Source: Rusavskia elegans
Taxonomy: Eukaryota; Ascomycota; Lecanoromycetes; Teloschistales; Teloschistaceae
NCBI GenBank assembly: GCA_011316305.1
Contig: SAUG01000115.1
Span: 1 to 64,000 of the forward strand
Direction: 5' to 3'
DNA: 64,000 nucleotides
In this document: piece by piece, positions 2,941 through 52,539 of the stretch
Layout: the number at the start of each line of letters is the position of its first letter
How positions within the stretch are numbered: the first letter of the stretch is position 1
Position numbers and translations under genes: made by a program
Notes under the pieces: model-generated
The model's database searches: none
Told to the model about the DNA's origin: nothing
Seen by the model: the letters and a program-made list of their open reading frames with translations, nothing else

Positions 2941-3556
2941 GACAACGAATACCACTTCCTAGCACCATATATATACAAATTTCTTGGAGGCAGTCGTGTC
3001 ACAAGTTCGTTGTCTCATCTTTCAGTCAGGAACCGGTCTGAGGCGAATTTAGAGCACGCTAACCTTATTAGGCTTGTATTTCATGCCTGGCGCCAAGAAA
3101 GGCATGAGAATCTGCGGCTGTATCAGTACGCCCAGGTTCAATATGGCCTGCTAAAGCCAATGTATTGTGTCTAAATATATAATATACAACCTGCTTGGTA
3201 GAACTTGAAGCCAAAGTAGAAGAAATACTAGAAGGCCGCCCTACTCGGTGCTCAGGAATTCCGCTTCTAGCTCGGCTAAGGAATCGTAAGTGAGCCACGG
3301 GATTCAATGGTAATTTCCAATATCAGAAGTGATGTTGATACCGGAAGACCATCCTGATACTTTGAGAGGAAGCTTTGCTTTATCAGAAATGCTCAAACAT
3401 ACGGACATCAACCAACTATGCTCCAGACATTCGCTCCATTTCAGTTATTCCAATAACCACATACACATTCCTGGTAGAACATAGTATGGGAGCCATTACA
3501 TCGTTCTGATGCAGCAGCAAAGATGTATTTAGTTGTATGAGACGGATCATCAAAAG
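2941..3556. other. Intergenic, nothing recognised
   Basis: This 616 bp stretch lies between the tRNA 5' end and the broken HET gene. It has ordinary composition and no supportable gene. Confidence 0.6.
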
Positions 3557-4740
3557 ATGTTCAAGATCAAGTACCCACCATTAATCTCTTCTCGTCATAT
3601 TCGACTTCTACAGATCATAGCTGCAGCCGTTGAATATCAAAAAACATGCTACGAGCTCATCACCGTTAAGCCGATGAAATGCCAGCCTATGTTGCACTTT
3701 CCTACACTTGGGGTAAACCCTCTATCTCCTGACGTTCAAGGAGCAGAGCATTGGCCCAACCACATCTCCCAACTGGTTCTCAAAGATGGACACAGCATTA
3801 ACATAGGACAGAACCTTTTTACGGCCCTAAAGTCTTTCCAGCAAATGGTCATATGTGGAGATATCTGGATTGATGCCATCTGCATCAATCAAAAAGACGT
3901 GGAGGAGCGCAACGCACAGGTGGCGATCATGGGCGATATCTATGCCTCTGCAGAAAATGTCATCGTATGGCTTGGGGAGCAAGATTGGAACTCGCTAATC
4001 GCAATGGTCTTTCTCGAAAAGTCCATGCCTAAGTTGAGGGATTTGAAGGCGCGCGAGAAGGTCGAGGACGAATCTTTCTCGTACATTTTCAGTGACCCGA
4101 GACTCTACGACAGAATCGGTGAACCTGTGATTCCGCAAGAAGTATTCGACGGTCTAGCAAGCTTTCTCGAACGCGCTTGGTTCAAGCGAGCGTGAACGTT
4201 CCAGGAAATTGTGCTGGCTCGACGAATCGAGGCGATCTGCGGAACGGCGTACATTATTGTATGGGAACAATTGGAAACGTTACTGGCATTTTTGGAGACA
4301 TCCGACTGGGATATGCGCTTGTCACGTTTTCAAAACTCGTCAAAAGTCCAACAGATTCCTGGAAAACTGATCCTGTCAACTATTGTGTACAGGCGCCATA
4401 TCGCTCAGGGCGGTCCTCATGAGCCGATCCAGCGAGTATTTCTCGAGCGGATAGCTGCTGGTTAATGCCCGAGCGATCTGCTAGTGGCAGAGCTCGATAG
4501 TCTTTCGTATAGTATGCGCTGCCGGAAAGCGACAGACCGCCGAGACCATGTGTATGCACTATATGGTATTGCAATTCGTTTCTGCGAGCGCATGGAGATT
4601 GCAAACCCATTGCCAGCACCTGACTACCAACAGAGCTTCGAAGAAGCTTACACCCGGTATGCCCGTTGTGTGCTGCAAACCTCAATCACACTTCTACTCT
4701 CCACCTTTATCTTGCAAATCTCTAGCCTACCCTCGTCTCG
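3557..4740 (+). pseudogene. Heterokaryon-incompatibility (HET) domain gene, degraded
   Basis: HET-domain motifs appear in order: SSRHIRLLQI, a YVALSYTWGKP stretch in another frame (about 3,690-3,725), IWIDAICINQKDVEERN, MGDIYASAENVIVWLGE, then TFQEIVLARRIEAICG and ATDRRDHVYALYGIA. HET proteins mediate non-self recognition and cell death after hyphal fusion. Here the conserved blocks are split by two frame changes (near 3,670-3,690 and 3,727-3,735). In-frame stops follow at 4193-4195 (TGA exactly where the conserved W of R-x-W-x-x-QE is expected) and 4463-4465 (TAA). The gap between the first pair of frames is only 28-34 bp, too short for an intron. The natural start is unclear; the first in-frame ATG was used. 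The 3' end runs tail-to-tail into the next gene. Confidence 0.8.
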
Positions 4741-44464: not shown

Positions 44465-45714
44465 TCAGAGCATCAATCTTGGATCCAAGCTGGATACATC
44501 TGCACTGCTGGTTCTGCCATCAAGGATCATTTCGCTTATAACCTTTCCCGTGCCTGGCCCATTGGAAATGCCCCATGAATCGTGGCCTGATGCTAGCCAA
44601 AGAGACTTGACGCCTGTCGGTCCAACCAAGGGTCCGATATCACGAGCCCGTCCGACCACGAAAGGCCGATAACATGCCTGTCTCGTAATTACCTCGCCTT
44701 CCCGAAACGCTGCCGAAATACTACTGACGTCTTCGTAGATGCGATCGCAAACCTTGGGATTGACGTCAACCAAGTCTGTAGTCTCTGGCAACGGAATATC
44801 TTGGTCACTCGGACCACAGGAGTATATGGTGCCGTCGGGGCGAGAGTATATCTCGGGTGGTATCCGTTTCTGGGGTATCTTGGGATGAAGCTCTGGGAAT
44901 AAGACGTACGCTGATACAGGCTTCCGTGGGCGAACAACAATGCTATGATTTCTCGACTCCTTTATAGGAGCTTCTGGCAAGAGTTTCTTTGTCCAAGGAC
45001 CCGCGGCAACCACGACGTCTGAGGCATTTACCTCAATAAGATCGGGCGTCTCTTTCGACCTGTAGCTCACAGACCTGATTTGACCCCCATCATTGTTGTA
45101 ATTTAGGCTGATTACGGAGCCTATAACGAATCGAGCTCCTTGTTCTCTGGCCACGTCGGCGATACTGTTGGTGAATGAATGTGGGTGCACTTGGGCAGTG
45201 TTCTCTGGACGGCCGAGCTCGGTGTAAGATGTGATCTTGTCCGGCGTGATCCAGTCGAGCTCTGGAGGATAACGCTTGTTCGACGGGCTCGAGACAACGT
45301 GAGAGTGGAAATGCGAATGGTTCTCGGCGGTGGCCGCATGGCCGACCGCCTCACCCATTGCATCCACATCGGCGCAGAAGACATGACGGAAGCCCCACTT
45401 CTGGATGCCGCCGTGCTTTTCCGCCAGTTCGCAATGGAGACGGTAGCTTAGAGGGGCTATACACGATGGATCTGCCCATGTGGCAATGACACCGCCTGCT
45501 TTGCCAGATGCACCACCTCCGATGCTGCTGGCTTCTAGGACTGTCACTGTGTAAGACTTCCGATCGTAGCAAGGGCGAGAGGTGAGAAAGTAGGCGATGC
45601 AGGAACCGACGACACCTCCACCTGGCTTTGTTAAGTATGTCACTCTTGCGAGCAGCGTTCGATAGCAACCTTACCAATAATGACTATGTGTTTGTCTTCT
45701 GGCACTGAGGCCAT
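44465..45714 (-). CDS. TDA3: FAD-dependent oxidoreductase (DAO family, TDA3-like), 398 aa
   Basis: Exon 1 is 45675-45714 and exon 2 is 44465-45621. The 53-nt intron sits inside the dinucleotide-binding motif, rebuilding HIVIIGGGVVGSCIAYFL. Next comes LLEASSIGGGASGKAGGVIA-type sequence and the DAO-fold VVAAGPWTKKLLPEAPI. The C-terminal SLWLASGHDSWGISNGPGTGK is typical for FAD binding in the TDA3 group. Yeast Tda3 is a late-endosomal putative oxidoreductase linked to cargo trafficking. DAO relatives also include fructosyl-amino-acid oxidases, but this sequence follows the TDA3 pattern. It is transcribed away from the receptor-kinase fusion gene 1.7 kb to the right. Confidence 0.87.
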
Positions 45715-47463
45715 AGTCGAGTACTGGCTTCGACCTGGGTGCTTCAGAATTCTAGGTCCTTTATCGACAGGCTGATAGAGCCAAGTTTGGAGGCTGTGAA
45801 GCAATACAAACACTTGATCATGAGATCCGTGAAGGTTATGGGGATGGGAAAACTGGTGACAGCCGGTGGCAAGGTCCTCAATAAATGACACCGAGTGGCG
45901 TCTTCCCAAAACATTGGAAGCTGCACCCACCTAGCGTAGACTGACATTCCGCCAATGAAGACGGAAGTTAATTGAATTGAGATAGGGATAGCAGGGTCCG
46001 CCTGAAGCATGCCGCTCAGGGGGATTCAAGGCAAGGGCTACTTCCACGCCATGCGATGTAAATTTCCACACCACAGCGCCTGAACCTGGCCGTAACAACT
46101 GCACATTAACAGAGCTATCGTCCAACGCCTCGAGAGTACGTAAGAGACCTGTGACTTGGCCTCTGCGTTCTTTGGTTGTGCTCTGTCTGGCAGTCGAGTT
46201 ATCGAATGCCTACCCCGTCAGTCGAAGTAATTCGGACTGTGGTGCGGCGATTTACATGGTGTGGTGTGGAGGTAGCCATGTGCCGGAATCAATCATCATT
46301 GGTCATATTATGAGTACGAACGGCTGCGGTGTGCCGCCTCGGGTAACCTGAGGTAACCTGAGGAAGGCCGGGACCGTGCAGCTTCCGACTACTTGACCAG
46401 TCGCTGTTCGTCACCAGCCACCATTAAAATCTTCACACCTCGCCGCTTGGAACGTTGAATGCCTAGCGTAGTGACGGGCTTGTCTGTCACGGTAGCTTGT
46501 GGATTTCCACATAAAGTTAACACGTGTGGGTTTCGGAGACGAAATTGCTGCTAATCCATGGTTCAGGTTGGGTAATTGGCGCCGGGGCAATTCCGGAAGC
46601 GCGACCCGAGCATCGGACCCTGATTGCACGTGACGATAGTCGAATCGGACCTTCCCTTCGTACTACAACGTAGGTTCTTGACAACCACTGAGTTCCCAGG
46701 ACTACTTGGGACGCCATATGATTGGAGACGATGTCTCATGATACCCGCAGAGGTCTGGTGCCCATGGGTCCGACGAGGCTACAAAACTCTCTGGGCTTGG
46801 CTGGCTTTGCCCTTTGGGCAAAGATCTTCCGACTTACGCTCGTGGGACTGCCAGGGATGGACCACGACCCTCCGAAATGCCCCCTTCCAGCCTGAAGTAG
46901 GTCGACTACTCTACTTCCTTGTCGCTCCCTTGCTAGAGGTCCACCCACATTGGACGAAAATAGAGCACGTGCAAATGATGTCGCGCCTGGCGAGCATGTC
47001 TAGCAGCCTGAAGTACAGTGTCTCCATCTGCTTGATGACGGGAGTACCATCTGCCCCACCTCAAGCCGCTAGCTATGCCGATTACAGCCGTGCTTCAATC
47101 ATGGCGCAGAGATCCGGGTTTCTAGGCCCAAACACACACCAGCGGCCTTCGTAGACCGGGCAAGAAAGAGAGGAAGCACGAGCAAGGAAAGTATGTGGGC
47201 AATGGCCACCTAAAAAGCCAAAGCTTACAACTTCCGGCATCGACTTTGTGCAGAACGCCGGCGCACTAGGGATACACCGCAGCTTGTGCTCCTTGGGGCT
47301 CAATTCGATTAGTGTTTTGCGCCCACGTCTGACATGCCAATCGTTCGTCTTTCCATCCCTCACTGCCAGCAGACGTCGAAGCAATTCTCACAGTGTAATT
47401 TTGCCATCTGAGCTATCGTCGCAGTGACCGTGCGAAACCCTGTGACGATGGTGAGTGCCCGCT
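45715..47463. other. Intergenic between TDA3-like and receptor genes
   Basis: 1.75 kb holding the promoters of two divergent genes. A plus frame at 46,624-47,154 (176 codons, GTG start) and a signal-peptide-like frame at 46,151-46,351 lack an ATG and homology; neither is annotated. Confidence 0.5.
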
Positions 47464-50400
47464 ATGAGACCGGATCGCACAGTCGCTGATTGGGCCAGGC
47501 TCAAGAGCCAGGAGCCACGTTGGGAATTCACCTGCTCTACACCGCACCCTCCAACCGACTTTCACCAGGCCCTATCGTGGAGTAAGGTTGATTCGGAACT
47601 TCAGGATCGGAATCGCTAACAGGCTCCAGCATTATTGCCGTCCATGGGATCGGTGCTCATCCTGACCGCACCTGGACCACCGGCGACGTCAATTGGCTCA
47701 AAGACGAGAACATGCTCCCAGGAGCCATACCCAACTCCAGAATTCTCCGATTCGGGTACGAATCACAGTGGCTGGGGAAAGATGCAATACAGCAGCGACT
47801 CTCTTCTGTTGCAGAGCAACTGCTGCGTGGTATGATGGAATCGCGCAAGGTATAGCCAGGACAGTACAAGGACTTTGGTGCTGTCGAGCTCAGGCTCTCT
47901 CAGGAATGTCAATCCCGGCCCATTGTTTTCATTGGTCACTGTTTTGGAGGTATCGTCATCGAGAAGGTTCTCCCTCCTATTGGCTGGTGTACGAGTCTAT
48001 CTGACTACTTTACATAGGCGTTGGTGTCGGCTAAGCTTCACGAGGAGGATTACTCGTCCGTTATCAGATCTGTAGCAGGGGTTGTATTCCTCGGAACACC
48101 TCATCGAGGGTCAAATTCGCAATCCAAAGCGTCAGTGTTAGCCTCCATCGCGTCCTCTGTGGCACTTGGAGAACACAGCAGCCTGCTCAAAGTCCTGGAT
48201 AAGGATTCCGAAATTCTGGCGGATCTTCTACATGATTTCACTCGTACTGTCAACACGATCGCAATCCCTCTGTTTTGTTTTTTTGAGCAGCACAAATCTG
48301 ACATTGCCAAAGTCCTTAAGTTCAAGGGCTCCAAGTTACTCATGCCGACGTTCAAGGTAAGTACAGCCCTTTGAAGAAAACGTGCATACTCAAGCAGAGC
48401 GATAGGATGCTGTCGTCGATGAGTGTTCCGGGTGTCTTGACGGTCATCCCAAGCTTGGCCTCGCTAGCGAACATTTCCGATTAAACAAGTTCTCGAGTGC
48501 CCAGGATAGCAATTACCGTCTTGTATGCGAGGAGATCGTGAGGATGGTTGAGGCTGCGTCAATTCGGGTGCATGGCCGTAGGAAATGTCAGTGCTGCCTG
48601 TTTGGACCTCGGCCAGGGGCGGGCTAACTGAACATCTTCAGCGGCAGCCTCTGCCCAACCCAGCCCTGGGGAACATGATGCACCCGACTACATTGGATCA
48701 CTGTCCGGACTCACCTTGCAGGCGCCGACCGTCTTTGGAGAGCGCGATAGCGCCAGCATTCGGGCACTGTTTGTCACAGACCCCGCCGACGATATGCATA
48801 TGATTGCAAACAAAAAGGACAGATTGCTGGAGACCACTGACTCTTGGATGCTGAGAGATGCCACATACCACCAATGGAAGCATGAGGATCATTCTCGAGT
48901 TCTCTGGCTTCATGGCGATCCTGGGAAAGGCAAAACAATGCTTGCAATAGCACTAATTGACGATCTTACAAAACATATACAGATTGCTGGAGAGGGCGTT
49001 AGCTTGGCCTTAGTCTACTTCTTCTGTGATAATCAAGATGACAGGCGAGGGAGTGCCTCGCTCATCCTGCGGGGCATCCTCTACCAGATCCTCTGCCAAC
49101 AGCCGGAACTCACAGTCCATCTGAACAAGGAGTATGAAAAGCAACGAGAACAGCTCTTTTCTTCACCGAACTCAATACAGACTCTCTGGAGGGTATTCCA
49201 CAACGTTGTGAGAAATTCCAACCTCCAAGCAATCTACGTTGTGGTCGATGCGATCGACGAGTGTGACGCCAGCTCCATGGAGACCCTGCTTGTCCTACTT
49301 GAGCCGTATGTTGACTCGCAGGATGAATCTTTCATACAGAATGGTCATCAGGATTCCCACTGCCTTGTGAAATGGCTTCTGACAAGTCGAAATGAGCTTA
49401 GAATTAGTCAACCGCTGACAGGATCTCCGGACATCAGCCTGGAAGAAAATGCCATCCATGTCAATAGTGCTGTCTTCAAATTCATTGATTTCAAAGTGAA
49501 GCAATTGACCAAGATCAAGCATTATGACGATGCGCTGAGAGTTTTGGTAGAGAAAACTTTGCGAGAGAAAGCAGAAGGGACTTTCCTATGGGTCGCCCTC
49601 GCCTGCCGCGAGCTGTCCAAGCCAGCTGTCCTATCGGTCAATACGGAAGAAGTACTGCTAGAGTTGCCTGCGGGTATTACCCCCTTGTACACCCGGATTA
49701 TGGATCAAGTCCTGACTTCGAGCGACGAAAGGTCTGCGGTATACATCAAGAGTATTCTACAGTCTATGGTAGTTGCTCTGCGACCGCTTTCATTACCAGA
49801 GCTTGCTGTTGCTGCAGGGCTACCTCAGCAGTACCATGACAAGCTCCATGTACTTGAGGAGTACGTGCAGCAATGCGGCTCGATGGTAACCATTCGAGAA
49901 CGGCAAGCTCACTTCGTCCACTTATCTGCTAAGACATATCTTCAACAGGCCCAGTTCGTTCATCTCTCTGCAAAGATCCATCTTCTCGAAAACGGTCGGG
50001 GTAGTATCGTGTCCAGAGATCTGCGGACGGAAAACCGAAAGATGGCGGTTCGCTGTTTTGAATACATATGCGACAAGTTGCGAAGCTTTGGGGGCCGCAG
50101 AGAGTCTTTGCCATCGAAACTGGACCTTACCGTCGGTAGGACGAGAACGGAGAAGGACAGGATTACTTGGCTGGACTATCCGATACTCTTTTGGATGGAT
50201 CACGCCAAACATGCCTCCGATGATATCTCTGATTACTTTGAAGTGGGTGCAGAGTTTTTCAAGTCGGGGTCGATTAAGCGGCAAATGTGGTTTACTTCAT
50301 ACTGGGTCAAGACCCACAGCGACCATGAGATCATGCCTGAAGCATTCACCTCCATGCATCTAGGTGCTTACGCAGGCCTGTCGTGGCTTCTACTAAAGCT

Positions 50401-52539
50401 TTTCGCCGCCGACTATTCGGAGGATATCCATGTTCGGGACTCTCAAGGTAATTCGCCGTTGATATGGGCGGCGAGAAACGGCCATGGCTCTGTTGTTCAG
50501 CTTCTTTTGGACAGGGGAGCAGATATCGGCGCAGAGAATCATGAAGGGGTTACAGCACTCTATTGGGCCTCGAATAACGGGCATTCAGCAACCGTTGACC
50601 TACTGCTGATAAACAAGGCTAATTGCAAGCCGAGAGACAAGATCGGGTGGACCTCGTTGCATCGAGCAGCGTTCAACGGGCACACTGGAGTTGTTCGTAC
50701 ACTCCTAGACAATGATGCTGACGTTGAGGCGACCGACACCACCAAATGGACCGCCCTGATGCGAGCCGCTACAACTGGAAACGTTGCAGTAACAAGGGTT
50801 TTATTATCCAAATCTGCGAACCCCAAGGTCAGGGACATGGAAGGCTGCACACCGCTCCATCATGCAGCAGCCTTTGGCCATACGCAGATTGTCAGACTTC
50901 TGCTGGAGTGTGGTGCAGACCTAGAAGCCAGAGATAATGAGAGGTGGACCGTCCTGCACCAGGCAGCTTGGAACGGGCACGAGAGGACGATAAGATATGT
51001 GTTGAAAAAGGGAGGAGACATCGGTGCGAAAGCTGACAACGGCTGGACAGCACTGCACCAAGCCACCTGGAACGGCCACCGAGCTGCCGTCAGACGTCTG
51101 CTTGAAGAGGGTGCGGATGCGGATGAGACTGACGATGAGGGCGAGACCGCTCTGCATCAGGCTGCTTGGCGCGGCCACTCTGGGCTTACGAAACTCCTCC
51201 TGGATCACGGTGCAAATCCTAGTCCTAGGGATAGGACTGGTCAAACCCCGCTTCACCAAGCAGCGAGTAACGGCTCGATAGCCGTGGTGAATTTGCTTCT
51301 GGAGAGAGGGGCTGATTCGAGGGCCGAAGATAATGATGGGCGGAAGCCACACTCGTTGGCTGAAGAAAATTTCCATCATCCATGCGCCAAGATACTCCGA
51401 GATAAAGAAATGGAAGTCTATGGTCGGGAAGTGCTGCCCGACTTGGCCAATATCCCACGGACATCCCATCCCGCCGCGCAGCTAGACTCAGCAGTCATCG
51501 CATTCCTCGCAGTTGACCAAAGCCGAGCTTCGATCGAGCCATATGGCCAAGCGGGCTTCTCGACCCCATCGAAGGTCGTAACAAACGTTGATGGCAAGAC
51601 CAGTACTTACTTCATGAAGACAGGGCCTGATGAGCACATGTTCAAAGGCGAATACGAATCGCTGGCCGCATTGTATGCAGCTGTTCCCTCGCTTTGCCCT
51701 CAACCACTAGCTTATGGGAAACTACGAGATTCGCCCGATTACTTCCTGCTCACGACCTTCATCGACATCGAGGCCTTGCCTGGTGGCCAATCCAGCGGCC
51801 TGTCTCTTGCCCAGAAGCTCGCACAGCTTCACAGTACTCCGCCCCCGGTTCCTGTCGGCTTTTCTAGATCGGGTTTTGGCTTTCATGTCCCGACATGTGT
51901 GGGCCGAACAATGCAAAACAATTCGTGGAATCGCTCCTGGCCCAAGTTCTTTGCCGAGAACCGTCTCCGCGCCGTTTGGAAGACCGTGGAAAGTAATCAT
52001 GGTACGGATACTGAGTTGCATTCCTTGCTTGATCGCATTGTTATTGAAGTAGTCCCTCGATTACTGGGAAACGGACATTTGGGAGGGAGGAAAGGTATCC
52101 AGCCAGCCCTCGTACATGGCGACCTATGGTCTGGGAATAAAGCTCGCGGAAGGGTAGGAGGAAAGGGTGGTATTGAGGACGTTGTCTTTGACCCTGGCAG
52201 CTGTTATACCCATTCGGAATACGAACTCGGAATCATGAGAATGTTTGGAGGATTCTCTGCAGGGTTCTTCAACGAATATCACCGTTTGATCCCCAAAACG
52301 CACCCGAAATCGGAGTACGATGATCGGCTGTGCCTCTACGAACTGTGAGTGTATCTTTCGATCGTGGGCAATTGGCGGCAAAGACTGAAAGATGCTCTAG
52401 ATACCAGTGGTTGAATCATTATGCCTTGTTCTCTGGGGGGTATCGCGAGGACGCTATGGAGTGCATGGAGAAGCTAGTTGAGAAGTACGGCAAAGAGGAA
52501 GAGGAAGAAGAAGAAGACGACTCGTCAGACCTCTCTTAG
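47464..52539 (+). CDS. STAND receptor: alpha/beta-hydrolase - NACHT - ankyrin repeats - fructosamine-3-kinase fusion, about 1585 aa
   Basis: Seven exons: 47464-47576, 47630-47849, 47904-47966, 48018-48356, 48406-48586, 48642-52344 and 52401-52539 (4758 nt, all phases close). An N-terminal SesB-type alpha/beta-hydrolase domain (about 38-290: IIAVHGIGAHPDRTW, IGHCFGG, VVFLGTPHRGS) leads to NACHT (about 380-620: P-loop HGDPGKGKT, Walker B VVVDAIDECD). Then come 10 or 11 ankyrin units (about 880-1235). Finally, about 1250-1585 is a fructosamine/ketosamine-3-kinase domain: YFMKTG, catalytic LVHGDLWSGN, VFDPGSCYTHSEYELGIMRMFGG, FFNEYHRLIPK. Fungal NACHT-ankyrin proteins act in non-self recognition; fructosamine kinase phosphorylates glycated lysines for repair. 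One exon spans NACHT, ankyrin and kinase without a stop. The exon 1/2 junction (alternative intron 47582-47622) and start are uncertain. The hydrolase nucleophile is Cys (GHCFG), not Ser. Confidence 0.88.

What the first reader, a model, noticed from the sequence alone, without database searches (positions are those of the whole stretch)
47464..52539. STAND immune-type receptor fused in frame to a complete fructosamine-3-kinase
Seen: one 3.7 kb exon runs without a stop from the NACHT P-loop through about ten ankyrin units into a kinase with HGDLWSGN, FDPGSCYTHSEYELGIMRMFGG and YHRLIPK; a further intron completes the kinase C-terminus. Known: NACHT-ankyrin proteins with hydrolase N-termini act in fungal non-self recognition, and fructosamine kinases repair glycated proteins. 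Inference: the kinase may be an integrated effector or decoy that links glycation or a ketosamine-like signal to receptor activation. I know of no described receptor of this architecture, but could not search.
Basis: partly seen in the sequence, partly recalled or inferred. Interest (0 to 1): 0.88.

Follow-up and report, generated by a model that had tools for sequence, protein, structure and literature searches.

The report
Fungal immune-type receptor fused to deglycation kinase
A lichen-type fungus carries a real, conserved gene that joins an immune-type receptor to an enzyme of a sugar-damage-repair family, and most other genes of that enzyme family in the same genome sit head-to-head beside another receptor gene, which suggests that these poorly understood fungal kinases work together with receptors.

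Summary
One 3.7-kb exon encodes NACHT, winged helix, ten ankyrin units and a fructosamine-3-kinase (FN3K) domain without a stop. I model eight exons (47448-52539, 1,576 aa) with a hydrolase-like N-terminus. It is not an assembly artefact: the same domain order occurs in ascomycetes of seven classes, and the kinase is about as conserved as the winged helix and more than NACHT or ankyrin. Residues that matter in human FN3K are present. In the NACHT tree the fused proteins share one branch, so the fusion looks ancient; kinase trees are weaker on this. New: of the 12 other FN3K-family loci in this genome, 10 lie 2-7 kb from a different NACHT locus, all head-to-head; controls 0 of 13 APH and 2 of 60 P450. 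Their NACHTs and kinases form clades apart from the fused ones, so FN3K enzymes seem to have joined NLRs at least twice, in cis and in trans. I read the kinase as an active input or regulatory module, with the hydrolase as output. Architecture is shown; mechanism is inferred. My paper searches found no description.

The parts
47448..47450 (+). exon 1, start codon only; intron 47451-47498
   Evidence: GT-AG; gives MAQEPGATLGIHLLY, like MASEPTIRLGLETLY (P0025) and MASGPAIRLGLETIY (P0023)
47499..47581 (+). exon 2, N-terminus of the hydrolase-like domain; intron 47582-47629
   Evidence: tblastn with P0011, P0023, P0025; gene model
47630..47849 (+). exon 3, alpha/beta-hydrolase-like domain (VHGIG)
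47904..47966 (+). exon 4, nucleophile elbow GHCFGG
   Evidence: DUF676 match just above cut-off in P0026
48018..48356 (+). exon 5, rest of hydrolase-like domain
48406..48586 (+). exon 6, linker to NACHT
48642..52344 (+). exon 7: NPHP3_N/NACHT, winged helix, ankyrin array, linker, FN3K domain without its last part
48836..49390 (+). NPHP3_N / NACHT nucleotide-binding domain (P-loop GDPGKGKT)
50432..51421 (+). ten ankyrin units of 33 residues, the last divergent
   Evidence: AlphaFold2 model, mean pLDDT 89; units listed
51482..52344 (+). FN3K domain, N-lobe and most of C-lobe (catalytic loop HGDLWSGN, FDP)
   Evidence: Pfam 168.7 bits; human FN3K chain 9cx8_A E 5.3e-40 with the spliced kinase
52401..52539 (+). 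exon 8: kinase C-terminus with LNH (His288 of human FN3K), acidic tail, stop

Best explanation
SHOWN from sequence: a fungal NACHT-type STAND receptor with an N-terminal alpha/beta-hydrolase-like domain, NACHT, winged helix, ten ankyrin units and a C-terminal FN3K-family kinase; found in seven classes of Pezizomycotina; kinase active site intact here; most other FN3K-family genes of the same genome lie head-to-head with NACHT genes of another clade. INFERRED: the kinase is a competent, ligand-binding input or regulatory module at the sensor end of the receptor. Binding or turnover of its substrate (a ketosamine such as a glycated protein, or a related sugar adduct) with ATP is relayed through the ankyrin array to the NACHT switch, which oligomerises and turns on the N-terminal hydrolase. 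In the paired loci the same kind of kinase acts in trans. This would be the in-cis and in-trans forms known for plant NLRs (integrated domain, guarded partner; recalled), with a sugar-adduct kinase as the monitored enzyme.
For: Architecture. Elsewhere: 39 rows, the window included, have both a NACHT match and at least 230 residues of the kinase. NACHT tree: one branch (SH-aLRT 97, quick method) holds all 31 rows with full FN3K and all 22 with its start, plus 4 rows that end inside the ankyrin array. Among 27 fused proteins the kinase is more identical than NACHT in 330 of 351 pairs and than Ank in 342 of 351. In the 39 fused rows: K 38, D217 37, W219 39, N222 38, D234 37; roles in human FN3K from passages of PMC11754801; H288 was checked in the window only. 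Pairing: 10 of 12 non-fused FN3K loci within 10 kb of an NPHP3_N match, all 10 head-to-head; controls 0 of 13 APH, 2 of 60 P450. Paired NACHTs one clade 97/98, paired kinases one clade 100/100, neither holding the fused ones. NACHT and kinase identities of the ten pairs covary (Spearman 0.39; 187 of 20,000 permutations as high).
Against: No transcript, protein or activity data. Input against output is argued from position only. 5 of 39 fused rows deviate at K, D217, N222 or D234 (P0006, P0012, P0013, P0019, P0025; some may be gene-model errors); of 14 Ank-only rows two (C72, P0091) have D217 to E, one (P0024) lacks D234 and two lack W219; one paired partner (C143, 827.9 kb) has Asn for the catalytic Asp. 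Winged helix and hydrolase part are about as conserved: kinase more identical in only 131 of 351 and 54 of 130 pairs. Single origin is weak in kinase trees: 79/87, unstarred, after four doubtful rows were left out; holding the set without P0228 and P0245 together is as good (p-AU 0.50); with the four rows or in the small tree stand-alone kinases fall among fused ones. The linker is conserved only among the 15 closest rows (60-93%) and is 6-32% in the other 11. Pairing was seen in one genome only and probably descends from one pair copied as a unit, so the binomial P (2.6e-14) overstates independence.
Confidence: 0.5

Rival explanations
1. The kinase is the output: NACHT oligomerisation concentrates or activates the FN3K domain, which phosphorylates ketosamines on target proteins and so reverses glycation or releases a reactive sugar product (3-deoxyglucosone, recalled).
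For: Active-site residues intact and kinase slowly evolving; enzymatic effector domains are common in fungal NLRs (PMC12258605, passages).
Against: Effector domains of fungal NLRs are described as N-terminal (PMC12258605, passages), and this protein already has an N-terminal hydrolase; the kinase sits at the repeat (sensor) end. In the paired loci it is a separate gene.
Confidence: 0.25
2. Scaffolded repair enzyme: the receptor part only targets a protein-repair kinase to damaged proteins in a desiccation-tolerant, sugar-rich fungus, with no role in defence.
For: Ankyrin order is stable in the 15 closest rows (9 of 9 tested repeats match at the same index in 15 of 15); a stand-alone FN3K gene coexists (C215); in Cladonia grayi a fructosamine kinase family is expanded and 3 of 7 members are induced in co-culture (PMC6652019, passages).
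Against: NACHT P-loop kept; also in fungi that I know as non-lichens (Xylaria, Zymoseptoria, Pseudogymnoascus); the head-to-head pairs with NACHT genes would need another reason.
Confidence: 0.13
3. Integrated decoy: the kinase mimics the housekeeping FN3K to trap foreign effectors, its catalysis being irrelevant. C-terminal protein kinases in Sordariales NLRs were read this way.
For: PMC12258605, section 20 read: 9 of 12 PKinase-bearing NLRs carry it C-terminally, similar to a core kinase. Here too stand-alone FN3Ks are the nearest non-fused relatives.
Against: Catalytic residues are kept in most members and the domain is well conserved over seven classes; a decoy would be expected to drift or diversify.
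Confidence: 0.08
4. Two genes or a gene-model merger: the join is read-through or an assembly error.
For: Gene models do merge neighbours: P0036 and P0056 join an armadillo family (PF00514) with FN3K, and in this genome an armadillo-like frame (by eye, not scanned) lies next to the C215 FN3K. The linker is poorly conserved in distant relatives.
Against: Here there is no gap: one open frame; the linker is 60-93% identical in the 15 closest rows; independent assemblies agree; ten pairs of pieces of this gene share a contig length.
Confidence: 0.04

Closest known systems
Fungal T-NACHT/Ankyrin NLRs (PMC4986451, listing; PMC12258605, passages and one section)
   Same: hydrolase-like N-terminus, NACHT, winged helix, ankyrin array
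   Different: an FN3K-family kinase follows the ankyrin array; array order stable in the 15 closest rows; nucleophile position is Cys (GHCFGG) in 7 of the 9 relatives where the motif was found
Fungal NLRs with C-terminal PKinase (PRD-4/CHK2-like; PMC12258605 section 20)
   Same: kinase at the C-terminus of an NLR, related to a core enzyme
   Different: FN3K family, not a protein kinase; found in seven classes, against 12 PKinase NLRs reported in Sordariales
Ketosamine-3-kinases / FN3K (human 9cx8, Arabidopsis 6oid)
   Same: sequence family and the active-site residues
   Different: fused to an NLR; the P-loop position that I take for human Cys24 is Ser here (aligned by eye with recalled human residues; no call shows it)
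NLR-effector gene pairs such as HET-S/NWD2 (PMC4344463, start of abstract)
   Same: NLR gene beside a partner gene (the paired loci of this genome)
   Different: partner is an FN3K-family kinase; no amyloid motif was looked for

Membership tests
Fungal NACHT NLR | NACHT/NPHP3_N domain with P-loop | tested here: met
   126.1 and 32.4 bits, both over cut-off
Fungal NACHT NLR | C-terminal superstructure repeats | tested here: met
   Ank_2 239.6 bits; ten units in the model
Fungal NACHT NLR | N-terminal effector domain | tested here: met
   hydrolase-like exons homologous to P0026, whose DUF676 score is barely over cut-off (20.7 against 20.3); no effector activity tested
Fungal NACHT NLR | ligand-triggered oligomerisation and response | not testable with these tools
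   needs experiment
FN3K (PF03881) | family profile over cut-off | tested here: met
   168.7 bits against cut-off 22.4
FN3K (PF03881) | K41, D217, W219, N222, D234, H288 of human FN3K | tested here: met
   In the window: D, W, N, D and H align with the human chains, numbering counted on the 9woi alignment with one extra residue; the Lys aligns with Arabidopsis 6oid only. Roles: PMC11754801, passages
FN3K (PF03881) | phosphorylation of ketosamines | not testable with these tools
   needs assay
Hypervariable allorecognition NLR (HET-E type) | highly similar, reshuffling repeats | tested here: not met
   mean identity between units 37%, maximum 55%; 9 of 9 repeats keep their index in the 15 closest rows; in the 11 distant rows only 1-6 of 9, where divergence and reshuffling cannot be told apart
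NLR with integrated decoy | extra domain copied from a host target | tested here: inconclusive
   stand-alone homologues exist, but no target or effector is known and catalysis looks kept

The most novel reading that the evidence does not exclude
FN3K-family kinases are dedicated partners of fungal NLRs, recruited independently in cis (NACHT-Ank-FN3K) and in trans (head-to-head gene pairs with NACHT-WD40 type receptors), so that a ketosamine or related sugar adduct, or the kinase acting on it, is an input to fungal innate immunity. In this genome each of the 13 FN3K-family loci found, except one housekeeping-like copy (C215) and one Ank-FN3K derivative (C72), is fused to or beside a NACHT gene.
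Probability: 0.3. Interest if true: 0.92.

Novelty: new variant of a known kind. Interest (0 to 1): 0.75.

Why it matters
Almost nothing is known of what fructosamine kinases do in fungi (so said in PMC7331620, passage), though that paper counts 29 in one species. Finding this family fused to one NLR clade and paired with another gives a concrete hypothesis: these kinases belong to receptor systems. It would add a sugar-adduct kinase to the known NLR partners, show in fungi the cis/trans pattern known from plant NLRs, and make the question testable with one domain assay and one gene removal.

Tried and rejected
Assembly error or gene merger: rejected (independent assemblies, one open frame, linker conserved in close relatives). 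Dead pseudokinase: rejected for this gene on residues only. A link to the neighbouring FAD oxidoreductase (44465-45670) as an Amadori-product oxidase: not supported; Pfam DAO only, best PDB match dimethylglycine dehydrogenase. Dating the fusion by kinase trees: unresolved at depth. Fold search with the Ank-kinase model: the 50 listed matches are ankyrin-repeat proteins or DARPins, so it says nothing on the kinase. A kinase-only structure without an alignment was useless, pLDDT 35; I spent the second job on it. A first repeat-order test with fixed 33-residue windows failed where indels occurred and was redone on the alignment with nine repeats. Rows dropped: 50 of 99 stand-alone rows kept; a chosen 71 of 153 kinase rows, of which four doubtful ones (P0086, P0106, P0154, P0170) were left out; 23 near-duplicates (120 to 97 rows) and NACHT matches under 395 query residues before the tree; 37 of 64 NPHP3_N matches not in the tree. 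P450 control: first 60 of 106 rows; APH control: 13 loci from 16 rows (two FN3K rows left out, two exons merged).
Full report
What is there. The frame 48632-52348 is open for 1,238 aa and holds NPHP3_N/NACHT, ankyrin repeats and Fructosamin_kin in that order. Homology to relatives placed the upstream exons; my model has eight exons, all introns GT-AG and 48-56 nt, coding 47448-52539, 1,576 aa. Five relatives scanned with Pfam (P0023 Lambiella, P0026 Geoglossum, P0032 Xylaria, P0037 Pseudogymnoascus, P0038 Zymoseptoria) all carry NPHP3_N, Ank and Fructosamin_kin over cut-off. With Candelina (P0019) and Chrysothrix (P0033), which have these domains in the precomputed list, and Calogaya (P0002), the family is in Lecanoromycetes, Candelariomycetes, Geoglossomycetes, Dothideomycetes, Sordariomycetes, Leotiomycetes and Arthoniomycetes. 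The nearest named relatives are Xanthoria, Calogaya, Caloplaca and Flavoplaca (kinase 85-92%); the unnamed 44-Mb genome (217 contigs) is therefore most likely of Teloschistaceae (inference).

Is it one protein? The linker between ankyrin and kinase is 60-93% identical to the window in the 15 closest rows, but only 6-32% in the 11 distant ones. I read this as an intron inside the kinase; equal contig length is not proof of one contig.

Origin. In a NACHT tree of 97 rows (quick method) one branch with SH-aLRT 97 holds 57 rows: 31 with a full FN3K domain, 22 with its start, and 4 (P0191, P0205, P0214, P0215) whose frames stop inside the ankyrin array. So every row of that branch that reaches past the array has at least the start of the kinase. 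Kinase trees agree less firmly: fused plus Ank-only rows are one side of a branch with 79/87 (38 against 29 rows), but with four doubtful rows kept or in a small tree some stand-alone kinases fall among the fused ones. A single old fusion is the simplest reading, not a proven one. The genome also has a stand-alone FN3K (C215, 51% identical) and an Ank-FN3K frame without NACHT (C72, 59% identical; L022 8191-9576), whose catalytic Asp is Glu.

Is the kinase working? Asp217, Trp219, Asn222, Asp234 and His288 of human FN3K have their counterparts in the window, and the Lys aligns with that of Arabidopsis FN3K. D217N, D234N and W219F abolish human activity and H288F reduces it (PMC11754801, passages). 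Over 27 fused proteins the kinase (mean identity 0.62) is like the winged helix (0.63) and hydrolase part (0.60) and exceeds NACHT (0.55) and ankyrin (0.54). The AlphaFold2 model of ankyrin plus kinase has mean pLDDT 89 but pTM 0.59, so the arrangement of the two parts is not fixed.

The wider pattern. The genome has 13 FN3K-family loci and 64 NPHP3_N matches. Leaving out the window, 10 of 12 FN3K loci lie within 10 kb of an NPHP3_N match (2.0-6.9 kb between the domain matches), 9 within 5 kb, and all 10 are head-to-head; C215 (126 kb) and C72 (none on its contig) are the exceptions. Controls: 0 of 13 APH loci and 2 of 60 P450 loci within 10 kb. The nine partner frames that I scanned are over the PF03881 cut-off; the tenth (C4) is over it. 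In the five pairs whose NACHT frames I scanned (C179, C175, C209, C32, C143 at 820 kb), all have NPHP3_N and GPIID_WHD over cut-off; four have WD40-type repeats over a cut-off, and in the fifth, cut by the end of the locus, propeller matches stay below it. In the C143 827.9-kb pair a hexokinase frame lies between. The ten paired NACHTs are one clade (97/98; 30 rows) and the ten kinases are one clade (100/100; 29 rows), apart from the fused ones. Their mean identities are 0.36 and 0.41, and they covary. So an ancestral pair seems to have been copied several times and kept together while diverging; the binomial probability treats the loci as independent, which they probably are not. I could not test other fungal genomes.

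Mechanism. By position the kinase is at the sensor end, opposite the hydrolase; in the pairs it is a separate gene. That fits an input or guarded enzyme better than an output, and explains both arrangements with one idea. This step is inference.

Literature. No held paper has NACHT, ankyrin and 'fructosamine kinase' together, nor PF03881 with ankyrin. 'Fructosamine' does not occur in the fungal NLR surveys PMC12258605, PMC9815663 and PMC4986451 (counts; the first two also searched). PMC12258605 reports 185 non-canonical domains in 8% of Sordariales NLRs and lists them in a supplement that I could not read, so PF03881 may be among them. The four papers with 'protein-ribulosamine 3-kinase' and fungi were seen as listings only. 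PMC6652019 reports an expanded fructosamine kinase family and many ankyrin proteins in Cladonia grayi, with no mention of NACHT in its main text.

Noticed in passing
G000 C175, C179, C174, C107, C185, C143 (two), C4, C32, C209 (loci L040-L049): Ten FN3K-family genes head-to-head with NACHT genes, 2-7 kb apart; used in the report, but worth a study of its own across fungi.
   Followed up: partly
L022:8191-9576 (C72): A 461-aa Ank-FN3K frame without NACHT, with HGELW in place of HGDLW; the same in Xanthoria P0091.
   Followed up: partly
window 47904-47966: The hydrolase nucleophile elbow reads GHCFGG: Cys where Ser is usual (recalled); 7 of 9 relatives with a found motif have Cys, 2 have Ser.
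   Followed up: partly
L023:7089-8948 and L023:4345-5379 (C215): The stand-alone FN3K lies next to an armadillo-like frame (by eye, not scanned); Psora P0036 and Penicillium P0056 gene models merge PF00514 with PF03881, so this neighbourhood may be conserved.
   Followed up: no
L043:4990-6345 (C143): A hexokinase frame sits between the NACHT gene and its FN3K partner.
   Followed up: no
L043:9259-9966 (C143): This partner kinase has HGNIWDQN: Asn at the catalytic Asp, a likely dead member among the pairs.
   Followed up: no
window 44465-45670 (-): FAD-dependent oxidoreductase (DAO) upstream of the receptor gene; no sign that it is an Amadori-product oxidase.
   Followed up: yes
window 3533-4195: Frame that looks like a HET domain (WIDAICINQKDVEERNAQ), by eye only.
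   Followed up: no
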